Assembly (NCBI GenBank): GCA_014871385.1
Contig: CM026426.1
Coordinates: forward strand, 23,389,437 to 23,453,436
Length of the DNA stretch: 64,000 nucleotides
Direction: 5' to 3'
DNA from: Ceratodon purpureus
Taxonomy: Eukaryota > Streptophyta > Bryopsida > Pseudoditrichales > Ditrichaceae
In this document: piece after piece, positions 44,618-61,606 of the stretch
Layout: the number at the start of each line of letters is the position of its first letter
How positions within the stretch are numbered: the first letter of the stretch is position 1
The notes under the pieces: generated by a model
Seen by the model: only the letters and a program-made list of their open reading frames with translations
The model's database searches: none
Told to the model about the DNA's origin: nothing
Program-made: the position numbers and the translations under genes

Positions 44618-44621
44618 TAAT
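44618..44621 (+). repeat. Target duplication of element C, left copy (TAAT)
   Basis: TAAT abuts AAGGGGTATTTAAG at 44622 and recurs at 60441-60444 after AAATATCCCTT. Confidence 0.65.
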
Positions 44622-44650
44622 AAGGGGTATTTAAGTAATTATGGACAAAA
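44622..44650 (+). repeat. Left terminal inverted repeat of element C
   Basis: Starts AAGGGGTATTTAAG, ends TGGACAAAA. Pairs with 60412-60440 with three mismatches. Confidence 0.7.
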
Positions 44651-44859
44651 CGCTCAATTATGGACTACTTTGCATCATCAGTAGACGTCCAATTCATGTG
44701 TTATCCCTCAAATTTAAAGACAAAGATGTCAAATATTTATGAAAAAATGCATTCCGTTTACAAGGGATAAAATCATTTGAGTGAATTTATTATAATGTTG
44801 AATAGAGGACATCCCAGTCCCACTGTCATGGCCGAATCTCTCGGCGAGTGGCTGACTGA

Positions 44860-44916
44860 GAACCCTAAACCCTAGAAACCCTAAACCCTAGAAACCCTAA
44901 ACCCTAGAAACCCTAT
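44860..44916. repeat. Telomere-like repeats inside the left end of element C
   Basis: AACCCTAAACCCTAG, repeated three times with GAAA joins, contains perfect plant telomere units (CCCTAAA) alternating with CCCTAGAAA. It could be an interstitial telomere relic or telo-box promoter motifs. Confidence 0.75.
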
Positions 44917-45254
44917 CATTAGAAATCTATCTGTTCTAATAAAAGGAAATACTTGCTCTGCAAAATGTGGATCTGTGAAGTGAAGCGGGTGAAGGGAAGA
45001 TCGTCGGCGACCCGCTGAGTGGACACGACTGCCAGGCATCTCACATTGGGGTGTCCGTCTGTGAGGACTCCGGAGTCGTCGTTTAGAATGAACAGTATTC
45101 AAGGTCACAACGAATGGAAGTCCTTTGTAGTCGGCTGGCCGCCGACTAGGAGAGCCAACCTCTTCCTCACTCAACCGACCTTTGGAATTTGAAATACATA
45201 TAAAAATGATGAGGTAATAAGTCCTAGTCCTAGTGATAAAAATGATGAGTAAGC

Positions 45255-45500
45255 TAGTCCTAGTCGGCTACCAGCCGAGTAGGAGAGTAGGGGCTACTAG
45301 TCCTAATGATGAGTAAATAAGTCCTAGTCCTAATGATGCAAATGATGAGTAAGCTAGTCTTAGTCGGCTACCAGCCGAGTAGGAGAGTAGGGGCTACTAG
45401 TCCTAATGATGAGTAAATAAGTCCTAGTCTGAATGATGCAAATGATGAGTAAGCTAGTCCTAGTCGGCTACCAGCCGAGTAGGGGAGTAGGGGCTACTAG
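45255..45500. repeat. 100-bp minisatellite with hairpin variant
   Basis: Three units with a 100-bp period (hairpin variants at 45263, 45363 and 45463), each with GTCGGCTACCAGCCGAGTAG and CTACTAGTCCTAATGATGAG. Three shorter GTCGCATACTGTAGAAG copies follow at 45590-45655. Confidence 0.85.
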
Positions 45501-45677
45501 ACTAGGTCGACGTTGGCAATTAGTCGTCCAGAAAACCCTAGAGAAGTGGATTACTAGAACGTTTACCAGTTTACTAGACGAACTCGTCGGCTGTGTACTG
45601 TAGAAGAAGGTCGCATACTGTAGAAGCAGGTCGCATACTGTAGAAGTTAGTCGCATATTGTCCAATATTTTGTCGTT

Positions 45678-46199
45678 ATGGGGAGGCGGGGTAGCAATGT
45701 GGAGCGACCATTTGGTCGGGAGACACCGGCTAACCTCGAGGAGCTCCGGCCATGGTATAGGGCGGTGGTCGCCCGTTCTCGCAACACCGCCATTCCAGCT
45801 TTCAAATACATCCCACGCCTTCTGCAGCCAGGTGCGCGGTGGTTTTGGAGTATTGCTCACAGCATTGAGTTGTTGGAGATCTCTGACGCTTCCGGCATCG
45901 CCTTCCCACTGACGTTCGAGGAGTCCGAGGAGTCCGAGGATTCCGGGAGTGTTGGCAGTGTTCACTTCAGCCACACAGGGGAAATGTCAACGCAAACCAT
46001 GTCAACTGCAGGGTGGCTCCGCCTTGTTGACGAAGCTTACGACATCTCGGAGGGTGCTGGAAGTTGGTGCTCTGGCCAAGATCAGTGGTGCGGAGGGAAC
46101 GCAAGCCCGCACTCCACGTATTCGTCGTTTGGATCCGTGCATCCATCCGTCGATACTGGGTGTAGTGTTGTCCGAGCCAAGTCTACTGCGAAGGACTGA
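45678..46199 (+). CDS. Small ELRPW-motif protein of element C
   Basis: 173 codons, ATG at 45678. The N-terminal 75 residues (PANLEELRPWYRAVVARSR, FKYIPRL, WFWSIAHSIELLEISDASG) align with the gene at 18699 in element B at roughly 30 percent identity by eye, with ELRPW and ELL conserved. The rest is Ser/Glu-rich and low complexity (EESEESEDSGSVGSV). It starts about 1 kb inside the left end, after the minisatellite, and converges on the DUF7869-like gene. Function unknown; the shared position in two elements suggests a common accessory role. Confidence 0.55.
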   Translation: MGRRGSNVERPFGRETPANLEELRPWYRAVVARSRNTAIPAFKYIPRLLQPGARWFWSIAHSIELLEISDASGIAFPLTFEESEESEDSGSVGSVHFSHTGEMSTQTMSTAGWLRLVDEAYDISEGAGSWCSGQDQWCGGNASPHSTYSSFGSVHPSVDTGCSVVRAKSTAKD

Positions 46200-46849
46200 T
46201 CGCTTCATGGCGTTGGCGACCATATGCAGCTTTTTGGTTTTTTGGCTTTAGGGTGAATTAGTGTGTGTTAGAATTGTCCAGCTCGTTTTCAATAGAGCTG
46301 CTTCACACACTTGGATAGTTGTAGAATTCATGGTTAGCATTTGTTACTGAGGCTTTAGGAGTAGTGGCATCTCTGATGTATACACAATACAAAGTAACAT
46401 GTAAAGGGCGGAACACTACCGTTGTACTCCGATAAGAATATAATGAAATGGATAAATATTTTCTCCCACTTTCTCAAAGCGCATAGTGGTTCTACAAATG
46501 TTGTGGAAAGCGTCGGCGGGCAGCCGACTAGAGTAACAGTGTCCACCGTAAAAATCACAGTCCATACAATATAGACCAGCCTCACAAAGTCACCGTTCAT
46601 GATGCTTATCAATCATGGTTAGAGGCATCGGCGGACAGCCGACGACCACCGAAGAAGGAAAAGTAAGGCATCAGAACAACAAATAGAAGACAAACCGTAA
46701 TACATGACTAGTATTGGGTCTACGGTAGAATACAATTCTTATTCAAAGGAATCACAGTGTTTACAATATTCAACTATAACGTTTACAGAGGAAACCATCA
46801 CTAGCTACATCTTCTACAGCTAAGATCACAATCGTCGGCGGGCAGCCGA

Positions 46850-49800
46850 CTAGTCTTCCTCCTCGTCATTCCAGTTCATAGAGATTCCATGCGATTCGAA
46901 GTTTGCCATGGCAGCAATCACAACATCTTCGGGTATTAGATGGGACTTTGGGGGCCCCTCATGCGTAGTTTTCTTGGTCCTATGAGTGTATACAACGGAT
47001 TTACACTCCACCCACTCCGCAAGAGTCAACTCCCTTTCCCACCGTCTTGTCCAGCACTCTCTCGCAACCTTCTTCTTACCTTCCTTCTTGCCCTTCATCG
47101 GAGTCCACCATTCAACCTTGAACTTACCGTAATTAGGACCAGGCTCTGTTATAACAGGCTCTATCGCCCTACCCATCCAAATGGGTAGGTGGTCTTCCTT
47201 ACACGGACGACAGAAAACCCAATCGCCACGTAAAACGTCACGATATGGGTTAAACACAGACTTCGGCCTAGAGTTTTTCGGACCACAGAAAGGATAGGGC
47301 TCCACCTCATCCTCGTCACCGGGACGAATATCCGGATCCGGTATATATTCGTCCTCTGCATCGAATGTGGTGACGTGGTCCCGCTTCCAGTCTGAGATAG
47401 GCCAGAATCCTTCCTGTAAGGTGGCGGAATTGGGGGGCAGTGGCTCGTTGACCTCCTTTAAAATTCGCTCCCAATACAGTACATATGGTAACATGTCTTG
47501 TGCGTATTTCTTATCCCGAGCCATGCCAGTTCTCCAGTACTCAATGTACTTAGATAATCCACTTTTAATGAAATTTCTCTTCTCTGAACACTCTGCTGCC
47601 CTTGCCACCTCTTTATCCGCGTTCTTCTTGCCCTCATCGACTTCAACACTACCCCATTAGGGCTTATGAGGAACCGGTTTGGGATCACCAACGGGCAAAC
47701 GTGGTTTACCCTCTTTGTCTGCCCTCCACATTTTCACGGGTTTGCCAGGTGGAAGCCATGACGGATCAGTTGCACGCTTCTTGTACCTCATCACGGGCCA
47801 CCCTGCATCCTCCCCATCCTCCACTACATAGAACTTAAAAAGATGCATTTCACTGTGACCTTCTATCGCATTACCTCCGTCGTGATGAAAATCAGCAACA
47901 TAACTTTTGAAGTCTGCCACTTCCTGAACAACCTCTGGAATAAAGGCAACTGTCTTCTGAGAATACATGAATGCCTTCATAAGGTCGGCAAGGCAGTATG
48001 TGTTCTTTCGCTTAATGAGTTTCGACAGGTGACTGAAGTGGGCGTCGATGTCCTCATGTGTGTGTCCCACAATCAGGAAACCAACTGTAACTTCCTTGAA
48101 TATTCGCCTCGCCGTCAGCAACGAGCAGAATGCTAGAAGAAACCGGTTCTTATTGTCCTTCGCAGAATTGTCAAGCTGGAGATACAACTTCTTCGGCAAA
48201 GGAACAGCAGGCCTACCAGGCAGAGGTGGAGTGAGTGGCTCATCTCTAGAAGGTGGAATTGAGGGGATGCAACGTGACGATCCATGCATTAGCGCTGCAA
48301 AGAATTCATTCTGTGGCGGTGCCTCAAAGAGTGCTTTTGACTCCCGGACAGGTAGTCTCTCCAAGGCACGGAATACCCTGCACAACGAGGAGATTGTGAA
48401 ATTTGGGTCTCCTGGCCACAGGGCAGTTGCATAGTGTGCGTAGGCGCCATCTCCGTGACCGTGAGTCAGCATTCCAGTACAGGAAATCGGAATTTGACCA
48501 AGCCCTGCCGTAGCCTTCGTGATACGTTGCATGCGGGGGATCGCTGTTTTCGATGTGTCCATCTTATCATGTATGATGCATAGGAACTCAGTAGGACTCT
48601 GTATAGATTGGGTTGTCCATCCGTAATAAATGTTGCGACAAGCTCGCTGATAGTTCAAATGCCTGATCCTATCCTCTGTCAAGCTCTGCCACTCGTCCGA
48701 CCCTCTTGGATACTTGGCAATGAGTTCAACGAGGAAGTCACACTCAGTGCACTTGGAGAAATTACTTCCTACTGCCTTGACCTCAACGTTGCGGAAGTAC
48801 TCCTTCCTCATGCGACTAACGGAGGACTGCGAAATCAGGTTCGCGTTGCACTGCTCATTGACCTGAATAGCACAGAGTGAGGTCGATCAGTTGGGAAGTT
48901 CGTCATCCAGTCGGCGGGCAGCCGACGATAGTAATCACTATAATTCAGTAAACTATCCAAAGTGAAAGAAGATGAGGAGGAACTTACGGCGTTGGCCATT
49001 TCGCGCATGTGATTCCAGTTCATCGCAGACGGGAGTACTTTGAGCGCGGCCACTCTCTTCTTGCCAATCATCCGAAACTCATTGGGCATTTGGTCGGCAT
49101 TCTCATTAACGATAGTGGTCAACGTCGCGCGGGCCTGGATTGTGTGAATCTGGGGACGATGTACACCGGAATTTCCGTAACTCCCATTGACACGACCACT
49201 TCGGGCCGAAGCCTTGTAGCTGTAGTACGCGGATTTCGATACTCCGTGAATGATATACCACGCCACTTCACATACGTCAACGTTCGCAAGAGTAACATAG
49301 AGCTTCCGCTTGCCGGGTACAGTATGTAAGTGCCCTTGCACAGCAAAGGACATCTCTCGCCTCGCCTCGAATGTTGTTGCGTAAAATCTACGACGAATAC
49401 GCACAGTATCTTCCCATCTAAAAGTCTGGCAACATCGGTCCTTGCAACACCGCTTTGAGCTCACTAAGCGGCATTCAGCAGGGACAACCATTCGACGAAG
49501 CTTAGTGGAAGAGACGTCATCTTTTTCGCGAACTTTCCTCCGCACCGATCGATAGGCATTCTTCGGGACACCATCCAGACCATCGTCCGCGTCGGCGTCT
49601 GCTAAATTCTCGGAGCAGTAAGTAATTATATCAGAGAGAAGGTGACCCCCTTCTAACCGAGTGTGAGTCAGACGCCATCTGAGAGTTGTCATCTGCAGAT
49701 GATCGTCTTCAGAGACGAAGAGAACCCCAACCTCTGTATCCCCTAGGACTTCATCATCACATGCCTCGTCCGGTAAACATACTTGAATCATTGCTCTACC

Positions 49801-50913
49801 ACGGACTGATAGATCATCATTAAGAAGTTCGACATAGCGATTTCTCCAGAGGTGGCGGTCAGGATAAGAAGCATCTGGAGTGGAAGGAGTACCCGAGGTC
49901 CCGGAATCCGGACCCCAACAATGATCATCTATTTCTACGTCGGATTCCCCTTGTTTAGACACATCGTCGTCACTGCTGATATTCATTGGAGACCTAGTCC
50001 CCAGATCCTGCTCAGACAAAGCGGAGTTGCTTTCATCAATTTCTTCATTGTCGTTCCCCAAGTGAGGTTCCGTCGGCGGGCAGCCGACGGGACATGTGCC
50101 AGCCAACACGCCGTTCACAATTGGACATACCTTGTATCCACTCCAAAGTACCAATCGCCCCACAGCACACCCGATCGTTAACACATCCGGTAACTCGCAG
50201 AAAGCAGGTGTTTCAGAGAATTCTGGATTGACGGACGACACTCTCACTATTAGAAAGAAGCTGTGAGGAATCAAGAACCCCTCCCACGTTCCTTTAGGAG
50301 AGCACTCCATAATGACTCCAGCGGCTACACAACGCTTTGAGCCTCCGGATTCCTCGAGGAGCGCAACTTCCATCTGCTCTGCGAGGTCCAGGAATTCTTG
50401 AACGGGCTTGACATCTTCTTCAACATCCGTCGGCGGGCAGCCGACGGCCTTGATGTCATCGTCTTCCACCTCTCCGAAAGGCCTGAGGTCGGCCGCCTCC
50501 CACAATATCATGCGTCCTAAGCAGTTGCTCAAGGACTTCACACCCTCATCCGGAAATGGTATATTCATTTCCATGCTGTCTGAAACCTCAATCACTTTTA
50601 CCACCACCACTATAGGATCAAATTCTACAACACGTTGGATCACTGCCCTGCCTGCATAATAGAGCCCTGAATGAGTAAGGGCCACGACAACGCCCTTTTT
50701 AACCTTCCACCGCCCTGATCGGCCATTCCTTAGAAACGTCTGGATCGGCTCTACTTCCATTGGATAAAAGATGAAGACCTCGTCGGCGGACAGCCGACAG
50801 GGTCGACGAGATGTGTCCCCACTGACGGAGTAAAATGTATCCGCCGACAACGAAGACGACTCGGCGGGCAGCCGACGCGGATCGTACAACTCGGAGTGTG
50901 CACAGAATAGCAT
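46850..50913 (-). pseudogene. DUF7869-like putative DDE nuclease/transposase gene
   Basis: Exon 1 (50913 or, more likely, ATG 50760 to 48988) encodes a 640-residue N-terminal part with a Cys cluster (CRLVSSKRCCKDRCCQTF) and DVCEVAWYIIHGVSKSAYYS, as in DUF7869 proteins. A 125-bp intron (48863-48987, GTAAGT to TTCAG) contains one hairpin repeat. Exon 2 (48862-46850) has IIHDKMDTSKTAIPR, LYLQLDNSAKDNKNRFLLAF and VGHTHEDIDAHFSHL, the three acidic motifs of this domain, thought to be an RNase H fold. A TAA at 47657-47659 interrupts the frame, which continues as WGSVEVDEGKK to 46850 with a chromatin-like Trp/Lys-rich tail. About 1,300 residues in all. Transposase is inferred from the motifs and the terminal repeats. 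Confidence 0.7.
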
Positions 50914-51767
50914 CCGCCGACGATGACGGACACGTCCGCCGACAGAAATTGCAGGGGACCTTAGTTGAGAAGCAGTTTGATGTCCCTAACCTGTCCAATC
51001 AGAGACTCCCCTCAACCGTCCAATCAGAAACGATAGACAAAGACAACAGAAACGGCAACAGAAGGTGCGGGACAGTTAAGCACATGCGGGAATAATATCG
51101 GTCCTCTCAGGAAACGTGTGCGTGAGGAGCACTCTCAGAGGGAATTGAAAGTGCAATGACAGAAACAGAATGAAGCATGCGCATCTGACGGGGGGTTAGT
51201 TATGAATTCCCAGGAGTACAAATTGGCGCCACAATCGAATTCAATTTTGCGCGCCTTGGACAAATCAAGATCCCATCATGGCGGCGAGATACCCCGCCGT
51301 CACACAACAATGTTAGTTCATTATTACAAATTTGAACGTGGCGATTGGAGCAGCTGTCACATCACATGCCCACGCCATCATGACTTGGTGACGGATTGAA
51401 AAAAAGTCAAAAGACGTCCCATCATCATCCTACGTGGCGTGATGGGACGGATGTTAGGGATGACCATCCATGCATGGATGGTATGTACATAGCCATACGT
51501 CATGACCCATCGGGCGTGACGATTCAGTCTCGGGAAGTGGGGGTCTGCAGGGTATACACCCGCCACTCCCGACATTTCCTCCTCATTTCCAGCCTTCTCT
51601 TTTTCAGCTCTCTTTTGTCCTCTTCTCAGCGCTCCGCAGAGGTCGCGTCGGCTGCTAGGTTTTTCTGCGTCGGCTGCTAGGGTTGAGGGCGTCGGCTCCT
51701 TCACCCGCGCGCGTCGTCTGCTGTTCGAAGGTCATCCGCCGACGGTGAAAGGCCATCCGCCGACGCC
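50914..51767. promoter_or_regulatory. Divergent promoter region of element C
   Basis: This 0.85-kb spacer separates the leftward DUF7869-like gene from the rightward ParB-like gene. It holds half-hairpins (CCGCCGACG at 50924 and nearby, GTCGGCTGCTAGG twice at about 51640-51680) but no clear TATA box. Both transcripts probably start here. Confidence 0.45.
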
Positions 51768-54700
51768 ATGGCAGCCTCCGAGAGTGGGTAAGTTGTCCAG
51801 TCGGCTGTCCGCCGACGCTCCCCTTCTTGAGTCCTTCATGTTTCCGTTTTCTCGCATGGGTTTGTCCCTCCCGTCGGCTGTCCGCCGACGCCATTCCTTC
51901 TTTTGTCCTTCATGTTTCCGTTTTCTCGCATGGATTTGTTCCTCCCGTCGGCTGTCCGCCGACGCCACCCCTTCTTTTGTCCTTCATGTTTCCGTTTTCT
52001 CGCATGGGTTTGTCCTTCCCGTCGGCTGTCCGCCGACGCCACTCCTTCTTTTGTCCTTCATGTTTCTGTTTTCTCGCATGGGTTTGTCCCTCCCGTCGGC
52101 TGTCCGCCGACGCCACCCCTTCTTTTGCCCTTCATGTTTTGTGTTCTCTCGCATGGGGTTGTTCCTCCCGTCGGCTGACCGCCGACACCACCCCTTTCTA
52201 TTTTCTCACATGGGTTATTCCCCCCGTCGGCTGTCCGCCGATGGGGAGGGCGTGTCCATCCGCCCCGTCGGCTGTCCGCCGATGGAGTGCGAATCTCATG
52301 GTCTAATCTTGTGATTTTGATTTTGCAGGGCGATGGTCGACTCCACCGCAAAACCAAATGGGTTACGGTGGCTCTGTGACAAGGTTGTTGATTCTGAAGT
52401 ACAAATACGAGCACGGGGCTTGACACTGAGGGTGACATTCCTCGCTGATTCGAAGATAACGGAGTGGGGCATCACCTGGCCTGACACTCCCACGTCGCTG
52501 GGCTTCGTGACCAAAATAGGTCAGAAGCAAATGGCGGATGGACCAAGATTTGAGATTATTGGAGCCAGGGAATGCGAGGATAACGGCAACGTGTCCTTGG
52601 TGTTTGCATCGGTTCCTGTCGCGGAGGGCACACCAGTGGACTGCTTCGCGGTTGTAATTCCGGTTGAGAAGTGCATGGACGGCTTGTGCTCTAAAGAAGT
52701 ACAGGATGCGGCTACTTGGGGCAGGGGCAGGAACATAGCTGTTGAACAGATACTCGACGTGATTGATACGCTCGGGGACAAAGCGATGGAAGAGAAGACG
52801 AAGAACTCGGTTAAGCCTTTAGCAAAGAAAAGAGGCGGCCGCAAGTCTGCTGTAGAAGCGGGCACTGGTACAGTCACCCCCGAGACCGGAGAGACACATG
52901 CGACAGGGGAGTCACCGAGAAGGAAGAAGGGAAAGGCAGCGGCTGCTGAGGGCGAGGGTGGGAGACAGAAGAAAGGTGGGAAGAAGGAAGAGAAAAAGCA
53001 GACCGTGGCGGAAGCTCTCATGCACGCAAACAATCTCACTTCGAAAACAAAGGACACCGACGTCCTTGCTATGTACCAGACGTTGGAGGAGGGACTTGGG
53101 CACTGCTTCCCCAACGGGCAACGTGCCCTTCCTTGTCAGATTCCATATAACAGGATACACATAGCTCCTGACGAATTTAAGTACAGAGCGATATTTAGGA
53201 AGAGGCAGGATCAGATAAGTCTTTTCTACAAAGGACTTGGAGCAATCCGGAAGAATCCCGAGCTGTACTGCCTTCCTATGAGTGGTGACCCCAGAGTAAA
53301 GGATCCAGTGACGGGCGAGATTAAGCTTAAAGGCTTGGAAGGACTTCTTCGACCTATGCCAGCCCTAAATATCAAGTATTCACGTACATTGGATGACGGC
53401 ACAACGTCGCAGATACCTTGGTATGAAGATGAGCTCATCCATTGGTACATTATTGGGGGCCAGCACACGTTTGAGGCTTGTCGAGAACTGGGAGAGAAGG
53501 AACCACTGGACTCTCCTATGCGGCAGTATTACCTTAACCACGATATCATTCCTGTATATGCTGATGACAAGGATACCCTCAATAAGGTCTCTAACGCATT
53601 AAACATCGAGGTGAAGGATAAAGTCGCCGAAGTAAGTTTCAGGTCCCAGCTGGCGAAGATGCGCGCCAAATGGATCGAGCGGGGGAGGATCAACAAGAAA
53701 GATGACTTCAGCGCATGGAAGGTAATTCACATCTTCCTCTTTTCCTGTTGTTTACATGTAGTTGAAAGTCGTCGGCGGCCCGCCGATGCTCCAGTGGTTC
53801 TCCGTATTGTAGAAGTGGGATTTATTTATCAATGTCATTTTCTTCTTCCTTGCAGGAGTTCTGCAAGGAGTACCTCAGTCCGATTCTCGGAAAGTCCCCT
53901 ACGTCCCAAACCTTCAAGCTGCCCATAGTCTTTGTGTCTGACGAAACATACAACGAGTGGCAACTGGTGTTCAACGCCTGGGAGGAGGGGAGGATCATCG
54001 GGGAGGACGGTTTGAAACCAGGATTTCCCCCAAAGCCAGCCCGCTGGGACATAACACTCAACGACATGCAGTACGTGATCGGTCTTCGGGACCACGAATG
54101 CAAGAGGCTGGCCAAGGAAGTTCTCGACCTTAAAGTGTACCTCAAGGTCACTGGGAAAGAGGTGGTTCAACGGGACGGAATATCCTTGGACAATTGGTGT
54201 TTTCGTGTGAAGTACGAATATGTTGTCCGAAACGAGCTCATGTGTATTTACAGGGGCTTTGCACTGAAGAAACCAGGGACTGGGAAGCATATTGAGTGGA
54301 GCATGGATGACTGGAATTCCCTTGAAGTCGAGAAGGGGTTCAATGATACAATGATTAGTAATATTCGGGCTGACTTGGAAGATAGTCCTGAGGGGAAGGA
54401 GTGGCTTAAGGGACGGAATCATCCGCTCACGCCGTCGCACGGGCCAACACCAGAATTCTTCAAAGACATTATGCAAAAGTACTAGAAGTCGGATGTGGAC
54501 CAGTCTTCGCAGTCGTCTGTACAGTTCGATGCCCGGATTGCACAGGACCTAGGTGAAGTGTGCACAGCTCTTGACGTTCGCGGAGCATTCTCCTTGGACA
54601 AGGCGCAGTATGAGATGTTCGTAGTCTTTGGCTACGATCCAGCGGGAAAGGAGATGCCTAACATGCGACAACAACACGTTATAACTGTCGCTGACAGGAT

Positions 54701-56508
54701 TCACCGTGAGGTGGAGGAGGAGGTCATTCAGGTGGATGGGGAGGGAGAAACAATTAAGGTGAATAAGCTTGTCACCCCATCCTTGTGGCTACTCGATGCT
54801 GAGTCCAATCACATTCTTCAAGGCGTGTCAAGGCTGACGAGTAGTTCGTGGACGGTTCATACTATGCAATACTTCCCTAATAGTTCCGCCGGGTTTCAAA
54901 GGAGTTCTCTCATTGACTCTAGACCCAAGGTTCATGTGTCCGTTATGTATCCAAAAACAACGCCCGGGGATGCATGGAATACCTTCTCGGACTTCACTGG
55001 TTTGAAACGTCCGCTTCCTCCCTATGTGGACGAAGGAGAAGATCATCTTGGGGAGGATTGGTCAAATGGACACTGCCACGCTAGTTACTCTTTCCTCCAA
55101 TCTCTTCTGGAGAAAACGATGCAGCTTGAGGACGTTCGGGTGATCAATTGCTGGGGAGGGGGGAACGTCACGGCCCTCGCTCTGGTAAGTCACTGCTGTC
55201 TCTTCTGGTGCCTTCCCTGTTTGCTCACCGATCGTCGGCGGGTAGCCGACGCTCATTAAATCCTTCGTGTTTCTTGGGTAGAAGATTTCCTTAACCGTTT
55301 CGTCTTGTTCTGCTGCAGAAAAACCATTTGACTGTAATTGAGATCGTGCGTACCGAGGAAGAGAGATACGAAGCGCACTGTCGGGTTCGGAATATGACGT
55401 TCATTCCGGGCGTTTATAACGTGCCCGTCCAAGCTCCAGTTCAGACCACGCAGTCTGGGGCCGGGCCGTCTGTCCCCGCCTCTGCTAGAGGCAGGACAGC
55501 CACTCTCACGGCTGCCGACTTCGGTGTGAATGCGAAGGAGGCCCTTTTGGTCGGGAAGGGTGGATGTATGGGTTCGGGGAAGACTGCGGGGGTTCGCTCA
55601 CAGAGTTATCTGGACTCCGACGACGATGTCGACGAGGAGCCACCAGATGTACCCGACCCTGACGTTGAAGATGAAGCTGGAGATGCTGAGGAACAGCCAA
55701 GAAACGAGGACGACCAAGCTGAGGCTCGCATTCCAACTGGAGATGCAGAGGTAGAGGAGAGATACACGCAGGACATAGACTATGAACCAGAACCCGACGT
55801 GGTACCACTGGAAGAATCGAATCCTCGTTACGTGAACCCACCGCTGTCGCAAGTTCTACGGGAGACCGGAACTGACTCCCTCAGCTTCGGTATTATTTCT
55901 CCTACATTTCAAGAGCAGGATACTCCTCCCGCCGAGCCAGAACGTGATTTAGACCAGGCGGGGCGTCCAAAGAAGATGCAGGTTCCTCTAGCATCGAGGC
56001 CTGACGATGAAGTGGTTCTCCGTGTCCAGAAGCCAACCCAGGAGCCTGCAGTGAGCATTGAAGGGCATGTTCCTCCTGCTGCTGTCGGCGGGCAGCCGAC
56101 GGCAGACGAGCAAACCTCATCTAACCCCTCTGCCAAGACCAAGTTGACAGGGAAGTCAATCGCATTCGTCACTCAAGGTGTGAAGGGCGCAGCTCGGATG
56201 ATTGGCCCGGATGAAAACCCTCTGGTCAAGACACGATCAATGAAGAGAAGTAAGACCGATGGTACTGCGCAGGATTCCTCTCTTGTGGTAACTTATCCCG
56301 TGATTCCTCAGGGGTTCAGGAAGGGGAGGAGTCCTCTGGGAAGGGCAAACGGAAGGCTGCTTCGAAGAAGACTTCCTCCAAGAAGGGCACATCTGGGGAT
56401 CTGCTCATGAGTCCCAAAAATGTGGACGCTCCAGAGGACGTTCTGTCACCTCCGCGGGCATCCAAACGGGAGCCTAGGCCGAAGAAGCACAAAGGTGGAG
56501 GACAGTGA
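51768..56508 (+). pseudogene. Spliced ParB/DGQHR-like protein gene of element C
   Basis: Start ATG at 51768 (MAASESG), 20-bp first exon, intron 51788-52328 full of hairpin minisatellite, exon 52329-53721, intron 53722-53855, exon 53856-55184, intron 55185-55318, exon to TGA 56506-56508; all junctions GT-AG and in phase. Residues about 280-480 resemble a ParB/sulfiredoxin fold: YNRIHIAPDEFKYRAIF, then WYIIGGQHTFEACRELGEKE, like the GxHR/DGQHR motif. Before it is a Lys/Glu-rich linker. Near the third intron VINCWGGGNVTALAL, then LTVIEIVRTEEERYEAHCRV, recalls a degenerate AdoMet-methyltransferase fold. The tail is acidic then Lys-rich (SKKTSSKKG). A TAG at 54483-54485 breaks the frame, and a one-base shift is needed in the last exon near 56285. 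About 1,310 residues. Function inferred only by motif. Confidence 0.6.
51800..52290 (+). repeat. 73-bp hairpin minisatellite in intron 1 of the ParB-like gene
   Basis: Units of about 73 bp each carry the hairpin followed by CTTCTTTTGTCCTTCATGTT and CGTTTTCTCGCATGGGTTTG. Hairpins lie at 51800, 51873, 51947, 52021, 52095 and 52170, with two shortened units at 52226 and 52267. Confidence 0.9.
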
Positions 56509-56609
56509 ATTTGGCGGTGGCCCAGTCCATCTTTTAAATGCCTGCATTGATAATTTAGTGTAGTGATCGGGCGCTAGGATTGTGTTAGATGTTTGTACTG
56601 CCAAATATG

Positions 56610-56615
56610 AATAAA
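56610..56615 (+). terminator. Polyadenylation signal of the ParB-like gene
   Basis: AATAAA about 100 bp after the TGA. Confidence 0.5.
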
Positions 56616-56740
56616 TTTTCGGTAAATGCCAAGTTGTACGCTTTCCCTTTTTCCAAATAATGTTGCTTGCAAGTCGGCTGTCCGCCGACCGTCATCCTAA
56701 CCGTCACGTTTGTCCTCTGCTTCGTTTTCTGTCACTCCAG

Positions 56741-57510
56741 AGTCCGCGGACAAGGAAGTCCATGGAAAACTTCACGAAGATAGACCCAGTGCAATTCTGG
56801 AGCTAGGACTTCCACCTCTGAATTCACTTCACATAGCCCCCGAACAGGCTGGTACTCAGGTACACGATCCAGTGCTGAGGTACTTTCTGGTTCTGGATAT
56901 TAACGGCCTGCTATTAGTCCAGACGAAGCAGGGTACTAGGTGGAATACTAAACTTAGACCAGGTTTAGAGAAGTTCCTAGAGTTCTGCCTGGACAATTTC
57001 GAGGTGGTCTTCTGGAGCTGCGTTCAGGAAAAGAGGTTCGAGATTCTGTGGACAGTGTTGCAGCAGCGCTGTCCTCGTCTAGATGCCGAAGTGCGCTACA
57101 AGTTCGACCAGAGTTTCTGCGAGACTTGCGTACATAAGGCTAGTAGGGAGTTTTATTTGAAGAGACTCCAGACCCTCTTTGACCTCGATGACGGGCTGAA
57201 GGGGACGGGGGCGTCTTCAATTAACACTCTCTTGGTTGATGATTCCCCTTATAAGAATGTCGCAAACACTCCTTGGAACGCTGTGCACCCTACACCATAT
57301 ACCTTCGAGTCGAAGGAGTCGGAAAATAAGAGGAATTATCAGGTTGGAGAATTGATTCCTTGGCTTACCAGTTTGAAAGAATCTAAACTCCCCGTGCTCG
57401 AGTACTGCCAGAAACACTCCGAATTCGGTCAGCGTCGTCTGTTTCCGGGGGATGAAGCTTATAATCTCTTTTCTCCACACATTGATTGCCCTAAACGAAA
57501 GAGAACATAG
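56741..57510 (+). CDS. FCP1/SCP-like HAD phosphatase homologue, copy 1
   Basis: The exon follows a good acceptor (CTGTCACTCCAG); an upstream coding exon was not found. Product of about 255 residues: YFLVLDINGLLL (motif I), LRPGLEKFLEFCLDNFEVVF then WSCVQEKRF (motif II region), FYLKRLQTLF, and LLVDDSPYKNVANTPWNAVH (motif IV). FCP1/SCP enzymes remove phosphate from RNA polymerase II tail or other proteins, using the DxDx(T/V) nucleophile. Here the second Asp is Asn (D-I-N-G), so activity is doubtful; plant DxN homologues exist. It ends in a Lys/Arg tail (CPKRKRT) and TAG. A polyadenylation signal lies at 57599-57604. First of three tandem copies. Confidence 0.7.
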
Positions 57511-57765
57511 TAGATGTAGAAACTGTTTTAGAGAGCATGCACATGATTCAGTCGGCTGCCCGCCGATGGGATCTTCATGTATTTAGACTTTTTCAGTAAA
57601 TAAAGTTTTCCTCCTTTTAAATATATGAGAACGGAACTCAGTGTCGAGACTGTGTATTCTGTTGTGGGTGTCTTATTGTGTCTCCATTTGTACACTAGAG
57701 CAAGTATGAATTGTGAGCATGCGATTGATCACCCATGTTTTCTTGGAATTTGTCCTTCATTTTTC

Positions 57766-58865
57766 AGGAGTCACTGGAGGATGACGCTGAAATTGAAGTG
57801 CACCAGGGACCTTCCCTTCTTAGTATGCTCTTGGAGGAGTACCCAACATCTCCTGATGGTGATGCTCACAGAGAAGAGTCTCCGGGAGCGGAAGCCGAGA
57901 ATGAAAGTGATGGGGAGGACGAGTACGACTATCCAGTCGGCGGGCCGCCGACGCTGTCTGCTGCACATAGCTCTGGCCGGTGTGCGATGGCTTCCACCTC
58001 GTTCGTCGAGACCAACGTCGCGATCCCGCGCACCGGTTCCCCGCGCGATGATTCCGTCAGTGTCAGCACTGATATTATTGCGCGTAATATTGAGGTACCT
58101 CTCCAACGATACTACCTTGTTCTTGACATTAAGGGATTGCTCATCGCGGAGCACCACGGGTATATCAGTGATGATCTGAAGACAAAAATTCATATCCGGG
58201 CTAAACCAGGACTTCTTTCATTTCTAGAGTTCTGCACGGCGAATTTTGAGGTAGTCTTTTGGTCCACGGTTTCTGAAAAGAATCTCGATCGTCACTTCCA
58301 GAAGCTGTTAGCCATTCATCCTTTGCTCAGGAGCAATTACAGACGCCTTCCAGGATTCTGGTGTGATATCTCAACACGGACTAATCTGAATGGGAAACGG
58401 GAGTACTTGTTGAAGCGTCTGGATAGACTTTTTTGCGACACTAGGCTACTGGCTCAATCAGGTGCCACTGTCCAGAATACCCTACTGGTAGACGACCGGC
58501 CGTATAGGAATGTACTTAATCATCCATTTAGCGCTGTCCATCCTAATTCCTTTTTCTGGGACTCTGCAGAGTGCAAAGAACCTCAACCCACCCCCAATCC
58601 CTATTTAACTAGGGTAGTTACACCATTCCTTGCAGGACTTAAGCAGTCTGGATTGGATGTCCAGGAGTATTGTAGGAAGAAGTCTAGCGTGGGGAAGCCA
58701 CGTCTTTTTCCAGGATCTCGCGAATACCAGAAGTATAGGGAGGTTATTCCTTCTCATGCATGCGGGTTTGACGTCCCGGGTGATCCTGGATCTTGGTTTG
58801 TGAATTTACCTTGTCCTACGGAGGCCCCTGGTAGTTCCATCGTCGGCGGGCAGCCGACTGATTAG
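57766..58865 (+). CDS. FCP1/SCP-like HAD phosphatase homologue, copy 2
   Basis: The exon begins after TTCATTTTTCAG. An acidic N-terminal extension (ENESDGEDEYDY) runs into an in-frame hairpin repeat (VGGPPT at 57936). The FCP1-like domain follows: YYLVLDIKGLLIAEHHGYI, RAKPGLLSFLEFCTANFEVV, FWSTVSEKN, KREYLLKRLDRLF, NTLLVDDRPYRNVLNHPFSA. Motif I is D-I-K-G, so the general-acid Asp is replaced by Lys, and phosphatase activity is unlikely. The last codons come from another hairpin copy (IVGGQPTD then TAG, 58842-58865). It is clearly a paralogue of copy 1; the two share the C-terminal pattern EYCxKxSxxGxxRLFPG. Confidence 0.7.
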
Positions 58866-59199
58866 GGCCTATACCAGCGGCGCCACTTGTTTTAAAAATC
58901 ACATATGATACTCTACACTCTTTAGTTAAATACACTAAGACTGTTCCCTTTCTGAACTTCCCTGCACCACACATTTGTTTCCAGGTGCTGCAGTTCGGTA
59001 CTTCTTTTTGTAGATCCATGCATGAACATCTCCCTTGCTGCACATTTACCTTTGAGGTTTCTTCAATGCATCGTTTTGTCGGCGGGTCGCCGAGGACTTT
59101 GAATATAGTCCATTTCTTTCATATACTTCGTCCTGTTCCTTGATTTCCTTCACTGATTGCATTTCATATTCTTCAGGGTTCCTCGTTTTATTTCAAATG

Positions 59200-59960
59200 C
59201 CTTCACGGTCCACCTCATCATGTCAAGAAATGTATTGTCCTATGCGTCAATGGCCTTCTCTGCTATGTGGATCCCAGGACCGAGGCTTTGCCATGGGATA
59301 CGCATCGGAATGTAGTGAAGCGCCCAGGTTTGAAGAAGCTTTTCGACATGCTTTTCTTGCATTTCCATGTTGGTCTGTGGTCGAAGATGCCCTTGGGAGA
59401 ACTGAAGCCTTTACTCACACATATTCTGCCGGCCGGTGTGTAATGGAGAGGCTGTCCTTCGTGTATAGCAAAAGTGACCTTATCGACCGGGAGAATTTCC
59501 CCTGGAGTTATAAGACGTTAGGTCAAGTTTGCTCCAAGGTACAGTCTAGAACGTCTGCAAACTAGATCAGGTGCTATTTGTGGATGTTGACCCGAGGTCA
59601 TTGAGGAGGACACCAAACTGTATGTGCTACATTCCTTGCCTTTTCAGGGTCATCTAAACTTTCCGAACGATGACGGCGTATACCTAACATGCTACAGATA
59701 TCCTTCCTCTGGTTTATCCCTTGCACAAGTTCGGATCTGTACCGGAGTATATGGCGCAGGCGTGTAGGCCGGGGCAAGTGCACTGGGCAATTGAAGCTGC
59801 GAGAAAGTTTGGACGTGCACGAGTGGACTGGACTGAAGTTTGCTGGGACTGAGTTAGGCGGCTTTTTCGCCTCCAACTTGCACTTCTTCCCTCCTCCTGA
59901 CCAACAGAACACCTTCCATCGGCTGCCCGCCGACTTGGTCGACCCGTTTGTGCGGCCTTC
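59200..59960 (+). pseudogene. FCP1/SCP-like homologue, copy 3, decayed
   Basis: In one frame 59235 onward reads KKCIVLCVNGLLCYVDPRTE, then VVKRPGLKKLFDMLFLHFHV, GLWSKMPLGELKPLLTHILP, and stops. Another frame continues as CVMERLSFVYSKSDLIDREN and FPWSYKTLGQVCSK; a third gives DQVLFVDVDPRSLRRTP for motif IV, near 59575. The nucleophile Asp of motif I is Cys. Several frameshifts, or one intron plus frameshifts, separate the parts. A hairpin copy lies at 59918. Confidence 0.65.
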
Positions 59961-60395
59961 AAATATATGATTTACTCATTGACCTTACGGCTATGCTTTC
60001 AGGGAAATAGTTTTCCGAGTAGGTTATAATGTGATAGGATTTACGTCAACTTGGTACATAGTGTTGGGTGTAGACTTAATGTTGTAGGACTTCATGACTC
60101 AAAGTGCTACGAGACTAGTTAGTTTAGCGTGTTCTATTATCGGCGGGTCGCCGACTCTGTATGTACATTTCATTACTTGAATCAACATGATATTCTTTAA
60201 AGTATTCATTGTAACTCTTATTCTGCATCACATGTCGCAATCTTCGGGTTCATATATCATCACTGGCAAATTCCGCCCATGCACATCTCGATGTCCAGTT
60301 TTGCATTCTATATTCTGTGGTATTCATGTACAATGACACTGTTCATCTGTGGACTCCATCCATCGGCGGTCCGCTGAGTTCGCATTGGTCATTTT

Positions 60396-60425
60396 TGAAT
60401 TCTGGACTTTTTTTTGTCCAGAATT
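60396..60425. repeat. Hairpin at the right end of element C
   Basis: AATTCTGGAC, a T-rich loop, then GTCCAGAATT. Its right arm is part of the terminal inverted repeat, so the last 45 bp of the element can fold on themselves. Confidence 0.75.
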
Positions 60426-60440
60426 ACCTAAATATCCCTT
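60412..60440 (-). repeat. Right terminal inverted repeat of element C
   Basis: Complement of 44622-44650 with three mismatches. It ends AAATATCCCTT, followed by the TAAT duplication at 60441-60444. Confidence 0.7.
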
Positions 60441-60444
60441 TAAT
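60441..60444 (+). repeat. Target duplication of element C, right copy (TAAT)
   Basis: Matches 44618-44621. Confidence 0.65.
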
Positions 60445-60633
60445 TGCTTGCACACTTTTTCAAGTAATGTGCAAATTAATTTGCAAGCCTACATAACTGA
60501 AGAGTGCAACTTCTGTCTAAATCATTGTGATAGAAACCTTATTTATTAGCCAGAAATAAATTCTATCAAATACGGTATAAGAGCAACCCAATATTTAAAA
60601 AAGAAAAAAGGAAAAAAAAAGAAAAAAAACTTA

Positions 60634-61606
60634 GCCCACGTTAACGTAGGCTTGCAACCCTCTTGAAATGAAATTTAACTCTTTCTCTCAAATCATAAAA
60701 TAATGCGTAATCCATACATCCAAACACCATACCATATACTCCACCTAATCTACTCTCAATCACCACCTCTGCAGCAAGCATACTTGTGAATGCTGCATGA
60801 TGGATATGATGCATAATCCCAATGTCGAACCTGTCCTTTACAATAAGCTCTGTTCTACCTTAAGAATCAAACAACTCACAAGTATTGAAAACCCTCGAAA
60901 TCCAATCACGCACTCCCACAAGATTACACAAGTCTACACAACTTATCACAAGTTAAACGAGCGCTGCAGTAATCGATCAGCCAGAGACTGTACACAACAC
61001 AAAGCTTAGAACTATTCAAGGGGTATGAAAGAGCACACGAAGTAATACTAGACTGTACATAATTCTACACCCTTCTTCTTCCCCAGCTCCATTACACTTT
61101 CATATCTGATGATATGCTAACTCTAATAGATATCTGATGATTGTTCGCAATGACAATCTGAACCTAGCCGGCCTAGAATGGACTCTTATGTGCATTCACC
61201 GGCCACCTTCACTTTAGAACCGGCCTTACTAACAACCGAGCGCATAATTACAGAGATACCAATGATAATTAAAACTTACATAGACACCATATCTCCACGA
61301 CATAGACACCATATCACGCAGCCTACGTGAACGTAGGCTGCACCCAGAATGGAATTCGATGTACTCTCAGACCCCCTATTAAAACCTGCTAAGTTTCTGA
61401 TCACCAGTCGGTCACACATGTTTCACATAACAACATTCGTAAGGGAGCTCGTTTCCGAAGCCAAGCAATTGCATGTCAAATATTCCGACACTTCATGTAG
61501 AAAGTAGGTGGGACTATGGCTGACCAAAACATGCCCGCTGATACAAAAGTAAACAAGCTTTCATGTAAACAAGAATTTGACGGCAGCCTACGTCAACGTA
61601 GGCTGC
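60634..61606. repeat. CACTA palindrome cluster, copies 5 to 7
   Basis: An imperfect copy at 60634-60652 (GCCCACGT-TA-ACGTAGG), then 24-bp copies at 61318-61341 (centre GA) and 61583-61606 (centre CA). The first is followed by CTCTCAAATCATAAAAT, as after copies 1 and 2. No gene is supported between 60445 and 61740. Confidence 0.8.

What the first reader, a model, noticed from the sequence alone, without database searches (positions are those of the whole stretch)
44622..60440. Candidate new class of TIR transposon built on a DUF7869-like nuclease
29-bp inverted ends (26 matches) with a TAAT duplication enclose a gene with the HDKMD, LDN-x-KDNKN and GHTHEDID motifs of DUF7869, a ParB/DGQHR-like gene transcribed divergently, three FCP1-like genes and a small ELRPW gene. 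I know of no described plant transposon with this set. The acidic motifs could supply a DDE triad, which would make this the transposase. The private hairpin repeat stops within about 510 and 62 bp of the two ends, independently supporting the limits.
Basis: partly seen in the sequence, partly recalled or inferred. Interest (0 to 1): 0.9.

Follow-up and report, generated by a model that had tools for sequence, protein, structure and literature searches.

The report
Giant Sola-like transposon in a moss
A 15.8-kb stretch of what appears to be a moss chromosome is a real cut-and-paste jumping gene present in dozens of copies; it resembles the known giant Sola-1 transposons of algae more than a wholly new class, but carries its own private set of palindromes beside a ParB-like gene.

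Summary
Window 44622-60440 (15,819 bp) has 29-bp inverted ends (26/29 identical) and a TAAT duplication. Of 40 genomic copies found by the left end, the right end was located for 31; 29 of those 31 have perfect 4-bp duplications of varied sequence. One insertion lies in a 121-bp tandem array whose uninterrupted units give the empty site. So this is a mobile TIR transposon. The DUF7869 gene (1,261 codons; intact in 4 of 9 aligned copies, one stop here) is the best transposase candidate: three acids are conserved across 39 aligned sequences, and its domain is the most constrained region tested (dN/dS 0.13). A new class is not the best reading: published Sola transposons have DDD transposases, 4-bp duplications, sizes over 15 kb and occur in moss, and a 21.5-kb Sola-1 element of the alga Ectocarpus carries a ParB-like gene opposite its transposase, as here. 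No Sola protein was on hand to align and no fold could be predicted, so membership is inferred. New here: FCP1-like cargo, and a palindrome found 283 times in fetched copies but once in 150 kb outside them, in a short element with similar ends.

The parts
44622..60440 (.). whole transposon copy, 15,819 bp
   Evidence: paired ends and TAAT duplication; same limits in other copies
44622..44650 (+). left terminal inverted repeat, 29 bp
   Evidence: 40 genomic perfect matches of the left 101 bp
60412..60440 (-). right terminal inverted repeat, 29 bp, 26/29 identical to the left
44618..44621 (.). TAAT target-site duplication, left copy
60441..60444 (.). TAAT target-site duplication, right copy
48988..50760 (-). 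DUF7869 gene, exon 1 (N-terminal 591 codons; start codon assumed at 50760)
   Evidence: spliced frame intact in 4 of 9 aligned copies, one stop in 2, frameshifted in 3; dN/dS 0.41
46850..48862 (-). DUF7869 gene, exon 2, with the putative catalytic domain; this copy has an in-frame stop at 47657-47659
   Evidence: Pfam PF25273 E=2.2e-44; dN/dS 0.13 for aa 592-992
48566..48568 (-). putative first catalytic Asp (HDKMD)
   Evidence: 33 of 35 ungapped rows
48170..48172 (-). putative second catalytic Asp (LQLDN)
   Evidence: 39 of 39 rows
48050..48055 (-). putative third catalytic acid, E-D of GHTHEDID (D in 39 of 39 rows; E in 37, D in 2)
   Evidence: spacing
51768..56508 (+). ParB-like gene, four exons (51768-51787, 52329-53721, 53856-55184, 55319-~56508); this copy has an in-frame stop and a later frame change
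   Evidence: open for >1,300 codons in 6 of 9 aligned copies; GQHT invariant in 25 aligned sequences; core dN/dS 0.44
55061..55400 (+). stretch resembling a degenerate N4/N6 DNA-methyltransferase SAM motif (VINCWGGGNVTALALKNHLTVIEI)
   Evidence: by eye only; no Pfam, PDB or phage support
45678..46199 (+). small ELRPW gene, 173 aa, unknown function
   Evidence: open in 8 of 9 aligned copies; dN/dS 0.54
56743..57510 (+). FCP1/NIF-like gene 1 (LDINGL; second Asp of DxDx(T/V) replaced)
   Evidence: Pfam NIF E=4.6e-13; open in 9 of 9 aligned copies
57729..58865 (+). FCP1/NIF-like gene 2 (LDIKGL)
   Evidence: Pfam NIF E=5.5e-8
59198..59845 (+). FCP1-like gene 3 (LCVNGL), broken in this copy; open 218 aa in 6 of 9 aligned copies
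   Evidence: by resemblance only
45130..60155 (.). 30 dispersed copies of a private palindrome, consensus GTCGGC-GGRCA-GCCGAC
   Evidence: 283 in fetched copies vs 1 outside

Best explanation
A giant (15.8 kb) TIR cut-and-paste DNA transposon of the Sola type, most like the giant Sola-1 elements of algae. SHOWN: it moves as a unit, makes 4-bp duplications, and exists in dozens of copies. INFERRED: the DUF7869 protein binds the ends (each end carries doubled AATT(A/C)TGGAC units), cuts and rejoins with an RNase-H-type D-D-D/E site, using staggered target cuts 4 bp apart. The divergent ParB-like gene is an accessory that may bind the element's own private palindromes. Defective copies such as this one would be moved in trans by copies with an open transposase gene. 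The FCP1-like and ELRPW genes are cargo.
For: Same two ends in 31 of 40 copies; perfect 4-bp duplication in 29 of 31, including four copies spanning 25-55 kb. Empty site with one AAAA in a tandem array. Eight other full copies are 95-98% identical to the window copy. DUF7869 domain dN/dS 0.13 (0.06-0.25), the lowest of the regions tested; gene intact in 4 of 9 aligned copies. Acids conserved in 39 aligned sequences, second-to-third spacing 38-39 in 87 of 90; a 27%-identical relative and a sea-urchin protein keep the motifs. Published Sola: DDD transposase, 4-bp duplications, some over 15 kb, Physcomitrella (PMC10741241; PMC9033089). Published 21.5-kb Sola1-1_Ec32 with a ParB-like gene on the strand opposite the transposase (PMC12477816). 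One public contig length (149,496) is shared by a DUF7869 and a ParB-like homologue.
Against: No Sola transposase sequence was on hand, so DUF7869 = Sola is not shown by alignment. No structure could be predicted (last try); a PDB profile search with DUF7869 had a best E of 0.23 and with the ParB-like family none. ParB-like and methyltransferase-like assignments are motif-level; Pfam and NCBIfam show neither. 2 of 31 copies lack a perfect duplication; the right end was not found for 9 of 40. The ParB-like protein as a whole has dN/dS 0.75, weak constraint for an essential part. DUF7869 loci elsewhere in the genome were not examined.
Confidence: 0.8

Rival explanations
1. A new superfamily of TIR transposons built on a DUF7869 DDD/E transposase that is not Sola.
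For: No paper in the held library contains 'DUF7869'; no Sola sequence could be compared; Pfam has no transposase label for it.
Against: The published Sola traits that could be checked (duplication length, TIR length range, size) are met, and a ParB-like gene opposite the transposase matches a giant Sola-1 element.
Confidence: 0.14
2. A member of Lanisha, the TIR superfamily proposed by Maumus, McDaniel and Carey in 2020 (host species of that report recalled as this moss).
For: Duplications of 2-5 bp in the wider group would fit.
Against: [quoted passage not shown] taking HEDID as the last acid, the 39 residues between have one Cys and no CxxC. Ends are AAGGG..CCCTT, not CA..TG.
Confidence: 0.02
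3. DUF7869 is cargo and another gene of the element (ParB-like or unrecognised) is the transposase.
For: Catalysis was not tested and no fold was predicted.
Against: DUF7869 is the most constrained gene tested, and its D-D-D/E pattern is conserved in distant homologues.
Confidence: 0.04

Closest known systems
Giant Sola-1 element Sola1-1_Ec32 of Ectocarpus (PMC12477816; passages seen)
   Same: giant DNA transposon; ParB-like DNA-binding gene transcribed opposite the transposase; UV-sex host with a long haploid phase
   Different: 21.5 kb vs 15.8 kb; its accessory protein (1104 aa) has a recognised methyltransferase domain, ours only a degenerate-looking stretch; FCP1-like genes and private palindromes are not mentioned in the passages seen
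Sola superfamily (as summarised in PMC10741241; passages seen)
   Same: 4-bp duplication, DDD-type acids, TIR within 11-1124 bp, size over 15 kb allowed, present in moss
   Different: sequence relationship not tested
Lanisha / CMCT transposons (PMC12730594; passages seen)
   Same: TIR element, short duplication
   Different: transposase zinc motifs and termini do not match
Bacterial ParB/parS partition (recalled)
   Same: a GGQH-type ParB-like protein together with many near-palindromic 17-bp sites
   Different: no partition role shown; homology rests on a motif

Membership tests
Sola superfamily | 4-bp target-site duplication | tested here: met
   29 of 31 copies with both ends, of 40 examined
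Sola superfamily | DDD-type transposase | tested here: inconclusive
   three conserved acids, second-to-third spacing 38-39; fold and activity untested
Sola superfamily | TIR of 11-1124 bp; size mostly 2-9 kb, some over 15 kb | tested here: met
   29-bp TIR; 15.5-15.95 kb apart from stretched copies (range)
Sola superfamily | sequence similarity to known Sola transposases | not testable with these tools
   original Sola paper not held; I had no Sola sequence to compare
Giant Sola-1 with ParB-like accessory | ParB-like gene on the strand opposite the transposase | tested here: inconclusive
   orientation met; ParB label by GGQHT motif only
Giant Sola-1 with ParB-like accessory | N4/N6 DNA methyltransferase domain in the same protein | tested here: inconclusive
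   by-eye degenerate motif; no Pfam hit
Lanisha (CMCT) | C(2)C and H(3-4)H between second D and last E | tested here: not met
   sequence between the acids, if HEDID holds the last acid; definition
Lanisha (CMCT) | 5'-CA..TG-3' termini in most cases | tested here: not met
   AAGGG..CCCTT

The most novel reading that the evidence does not exclude
The element carries a self-recognition system: its ParB-like protein binds the private palindrome GTCGGC-N5-GCCGAC, placed on average every 0.5 kb through genes and introns, in the manner of ParB on parS, coating or marking the element's own DNA to protect it, silence rivals, or bring its distant ends together.
Probability: 0.3. Interest if true: 0.82.

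Novelty: new variant of a known kind. Interest (0 to 1): 0.55.

Why it matters
It ties an orphan Pfam family (DUF7869, with relatives as far as a sea urchin) to a mobile element with demonstrated ends, which gives that family a likely function. It would extend the giant Sola-1 plus ParB-like layout from brown algae to a land plant, in copies 95-98% identical, several with an open transposase gene. The private palindromes make the published suggestion that such elements recognise their own DNA directly testable.

Tried and rejected
Host gene cluster with chance inverted repeats: rejected by the copies, duplications and empty site. Lanisha: rejected on motifs. Prokaryotic or viral origin: the DUF7869 profile found nothing confirmed in viral contigs (0 of 117 pattern matches) and two Bacteroidetes-labelled MAG contigs in genome contigs (2 of 41) that look to me like eukaryotic contamination; the ParB-like profile found nothing in viral contigs (0 of 60). 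Inverted repeats in L029/L030 gave no convincing ends. Searches for ParB or methyltransferase in Pfam, NCBIfam, PDB and phage tblastn: no relevant hit (best PDB E 0.023, an unrelated protein). More short elements with these ends in 371,741 fetched bases: none with both ends. MSA-averaged Chou-Fasman (propensity values recalled) puts a strand before each acid, weak evidence only. Of 15 joined insertion sites compared with the fetched DNA alone, one gave a clear empty site, one (C6_70.77) only a 79% partial match. One search was a faulty script, redone. The empty-site test of this window's own insertion was prepared but not run, as the genome search was down.
Full report
HOST. The window is G000:C6:23389437-23453436; the assembly has 362,488,568 bp in 151 contigs and C6 has 110,524,308 bp. 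A review gives Ceratodon purpureus (fire moss) a 360-Mb genome with U and V sex chromosomes over 100 Mb each (PMC8000587, passages seen).

IT IS A TRANSPOSON. The left 101 bp has 40 perfect matches (299 candidates, 40 scored) and the right 101 bp has 40 matches of 99-100% (233 candidates, 40 scored); both are lower bounds. Twenty of the 40 left-end hits pair with an independently found right-end hit in the same orientation at 15.0-16.5 kb, and four more at 25, 34, 46 and 55 kb. I examined all 40 left-end copies for the right end: found in 8 of 11 including the window, 7 of 10, 5 of 10, 6 of 9, plus 5 of the remainder located later, that is 31 of 40. A perfect 4-bp duplication is present in 29 of 31; the exceptions are C6_70.77 (CCTT/CTTT) and C6_7.0 (TTCT/CTAT). 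The 29 duplications vary, are 76% A+T, with T commonest at position 2 (18 of 29) and A at position 3 (16 of 29). The chance of 24 of the first 26 was put at about 6e-52 under an assumed base composition. The four stretched copies keep perfect duplications, as expected if other sequence was inserted into them later.

EMPTY SITE. Copy C2_18.66 lies in a 121-bp tandem array. Its joined flanks with a single AAAA align, without a gap at the junction, to the uninterrupted array in five registers. This was the one clear case among 15 joined sites, which could be compared with the fetched DNA only.

GENES. Nine full-length copies were aligned (window plus eight; of eleven, C6_58.42 and C6_39.07 were left out as rearranged; C6_73.06 was cut at its last aligned base, its right end not having been found). 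The DUF7869 gene has two exons and 1,261 codons. It is intact in 4 of 9, has one stop in two (including this window) and is frameshifted in three. The ParB-like gene is open for more than 1,300 codons in 6 of 9. dN/dS: DUF7869 domain 0.13 (bootstrap 0.06-0.25), its N-terminal part 0.41, its C-terminal part 0.26; ParB-like core 0.44 (0.26-0.74), aa 501-700 0.66 (0.33-1.31), methyltransferase-like stretch 0.56 (0.32-1.02), the first 235 residues and the tail 1.28 and 1.27 with no constraint detectable. The ParB-like protein as a whole gives 0.75, the FCP1-like genes 0.46-0.54 and ELRPW 0.54. These figures pool all pairs of the nine copies, broken ones included, so they are rough.

TRANSPOSASE. 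Of 232 homologues found, 38 were aligned with the window. In these 39 sequences the Asp of LQLDN and the first Asp of HEDID are invariant, and the Asp of HD is kept in 33 of 35 ungapped rows. Of the 207 DUF7869 homologues fetched in two searches (the script's 236 proteins also held 29 ParB-like ones), 90 showed all three motifs, and 87 of those have 38 or 39 residues between second and third acid; the first-to-second distance varies from 77 to 259. A relative at 27% identity (L030) and a Lytechinus pictus protein (P0169) keep the pattern. This is the layout of RNase-H-fold DDE/D transposases (general knowledge); the fold could not be predicted.

WHICH FAMILY. Sola elements are described as encoding a DDD transposase, with 4-bp duplications, TIRs of 11-1124 bp, some over 15 kb, and found in Physcomitrella (PMC10741241, passages; Sola1 in Physcomitrella also in PMC9033089, table passage). 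[quoted passage not shown] Here the ParB-like gene also lies opposite the DUF7869 gene. A stretch in it (VINCWGGGNVTALALKNHLTVIEI) looks to me like a decayed methyltransferase SAM motif, without database support. One contig length (149,496) occurs in both homologue lists (P0045 among the 120 listed of 232, P0145 among 29), which suggests that the gene pair is conserved in another genome; the identity of the contig was not checked. Taken together this points to a giant Sola-1-type element; the direct alignment with Sola is missing.

PALINDROMES. The 17-bp near-palindrome GTCGGC-GGRCA-GCCGAC occurs 30 times in the element and nowhere else in the window (shuffle expectation 0.06). In the fetched G000 loci of at least 500 bp from L009 on, plus the window, there are 283 sites (up to 2 mismatches) in 185,230 bp of element copies and 1 in 150,109 bp outside. 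That one sits in a short element of about 376 visible bp on C1 with similar ends, beside which copy C1_9.83 is inserted. The repeat lies in introns, intergenic DNA and inside exons (for example 50072, 56084, 57936). A ParB-like protein beside many private palindromes is the most interesting feature; that the one binds the other is a guess.

NOVELTY SEARCHES. 'DUF7869' occurs in no held paper. Of 23 held papers with 'Lanisha', 20 were listed and only PMC12730594 is on transposons by its title. The original Sola paper and the Ceratodon genome paper are not held. I ran no paper search aimed at palindromes bound by ParB-like proteins of transposons, so no claim of absence is made for that.

Noticed in passing
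L089:1-376 (G000:C1:9832893-9833268): A short element (about 376 visible bp) with similar terminal repeats and one copy of the private palindrome, apparently a non-autonomous (MITE-like) relative; copy C1_9.83 seems to be inserted a few bases from its end.
   Followed up: partly
window 60633-60652, 61321-61338, 61586-61603: Outside the element, another palindrome (close to GCCTACGTNNACGTAGGC) recurs three times within 1.2 kb of the right end; seen by eye.
   Followed up: no
G000 C6 versus other contigs: 20 of 40 best left-end and 19 of 40 best right-end hits lie on C6, which is 30% of the assembly; only the best 40 were scored, so enrichment is only suggestive.
   Followed up: partly
window 56743-59845: The three FCP1-like genes have LDINGL, LDIKGL and LCVNGL where phosphatases have DxDx(T/V) (motif recalled): the second Asp is lost, so they may be inactive as phosphatases.
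   Followed up: no
window 44637-44665 and 60398-60425: Each end carries a doubled AATT(A/C)TGGAC unit, direct at the left and inverted at the right, possible transposase binding sites (seen).
   Followed up: no
window 51800-52283: The first intron of the ParB-like gene holds a tandem array of about 74-bp units, each with one palindrome; offset matches to the other copies suggest that its unit number varies.
   Followed up: partly
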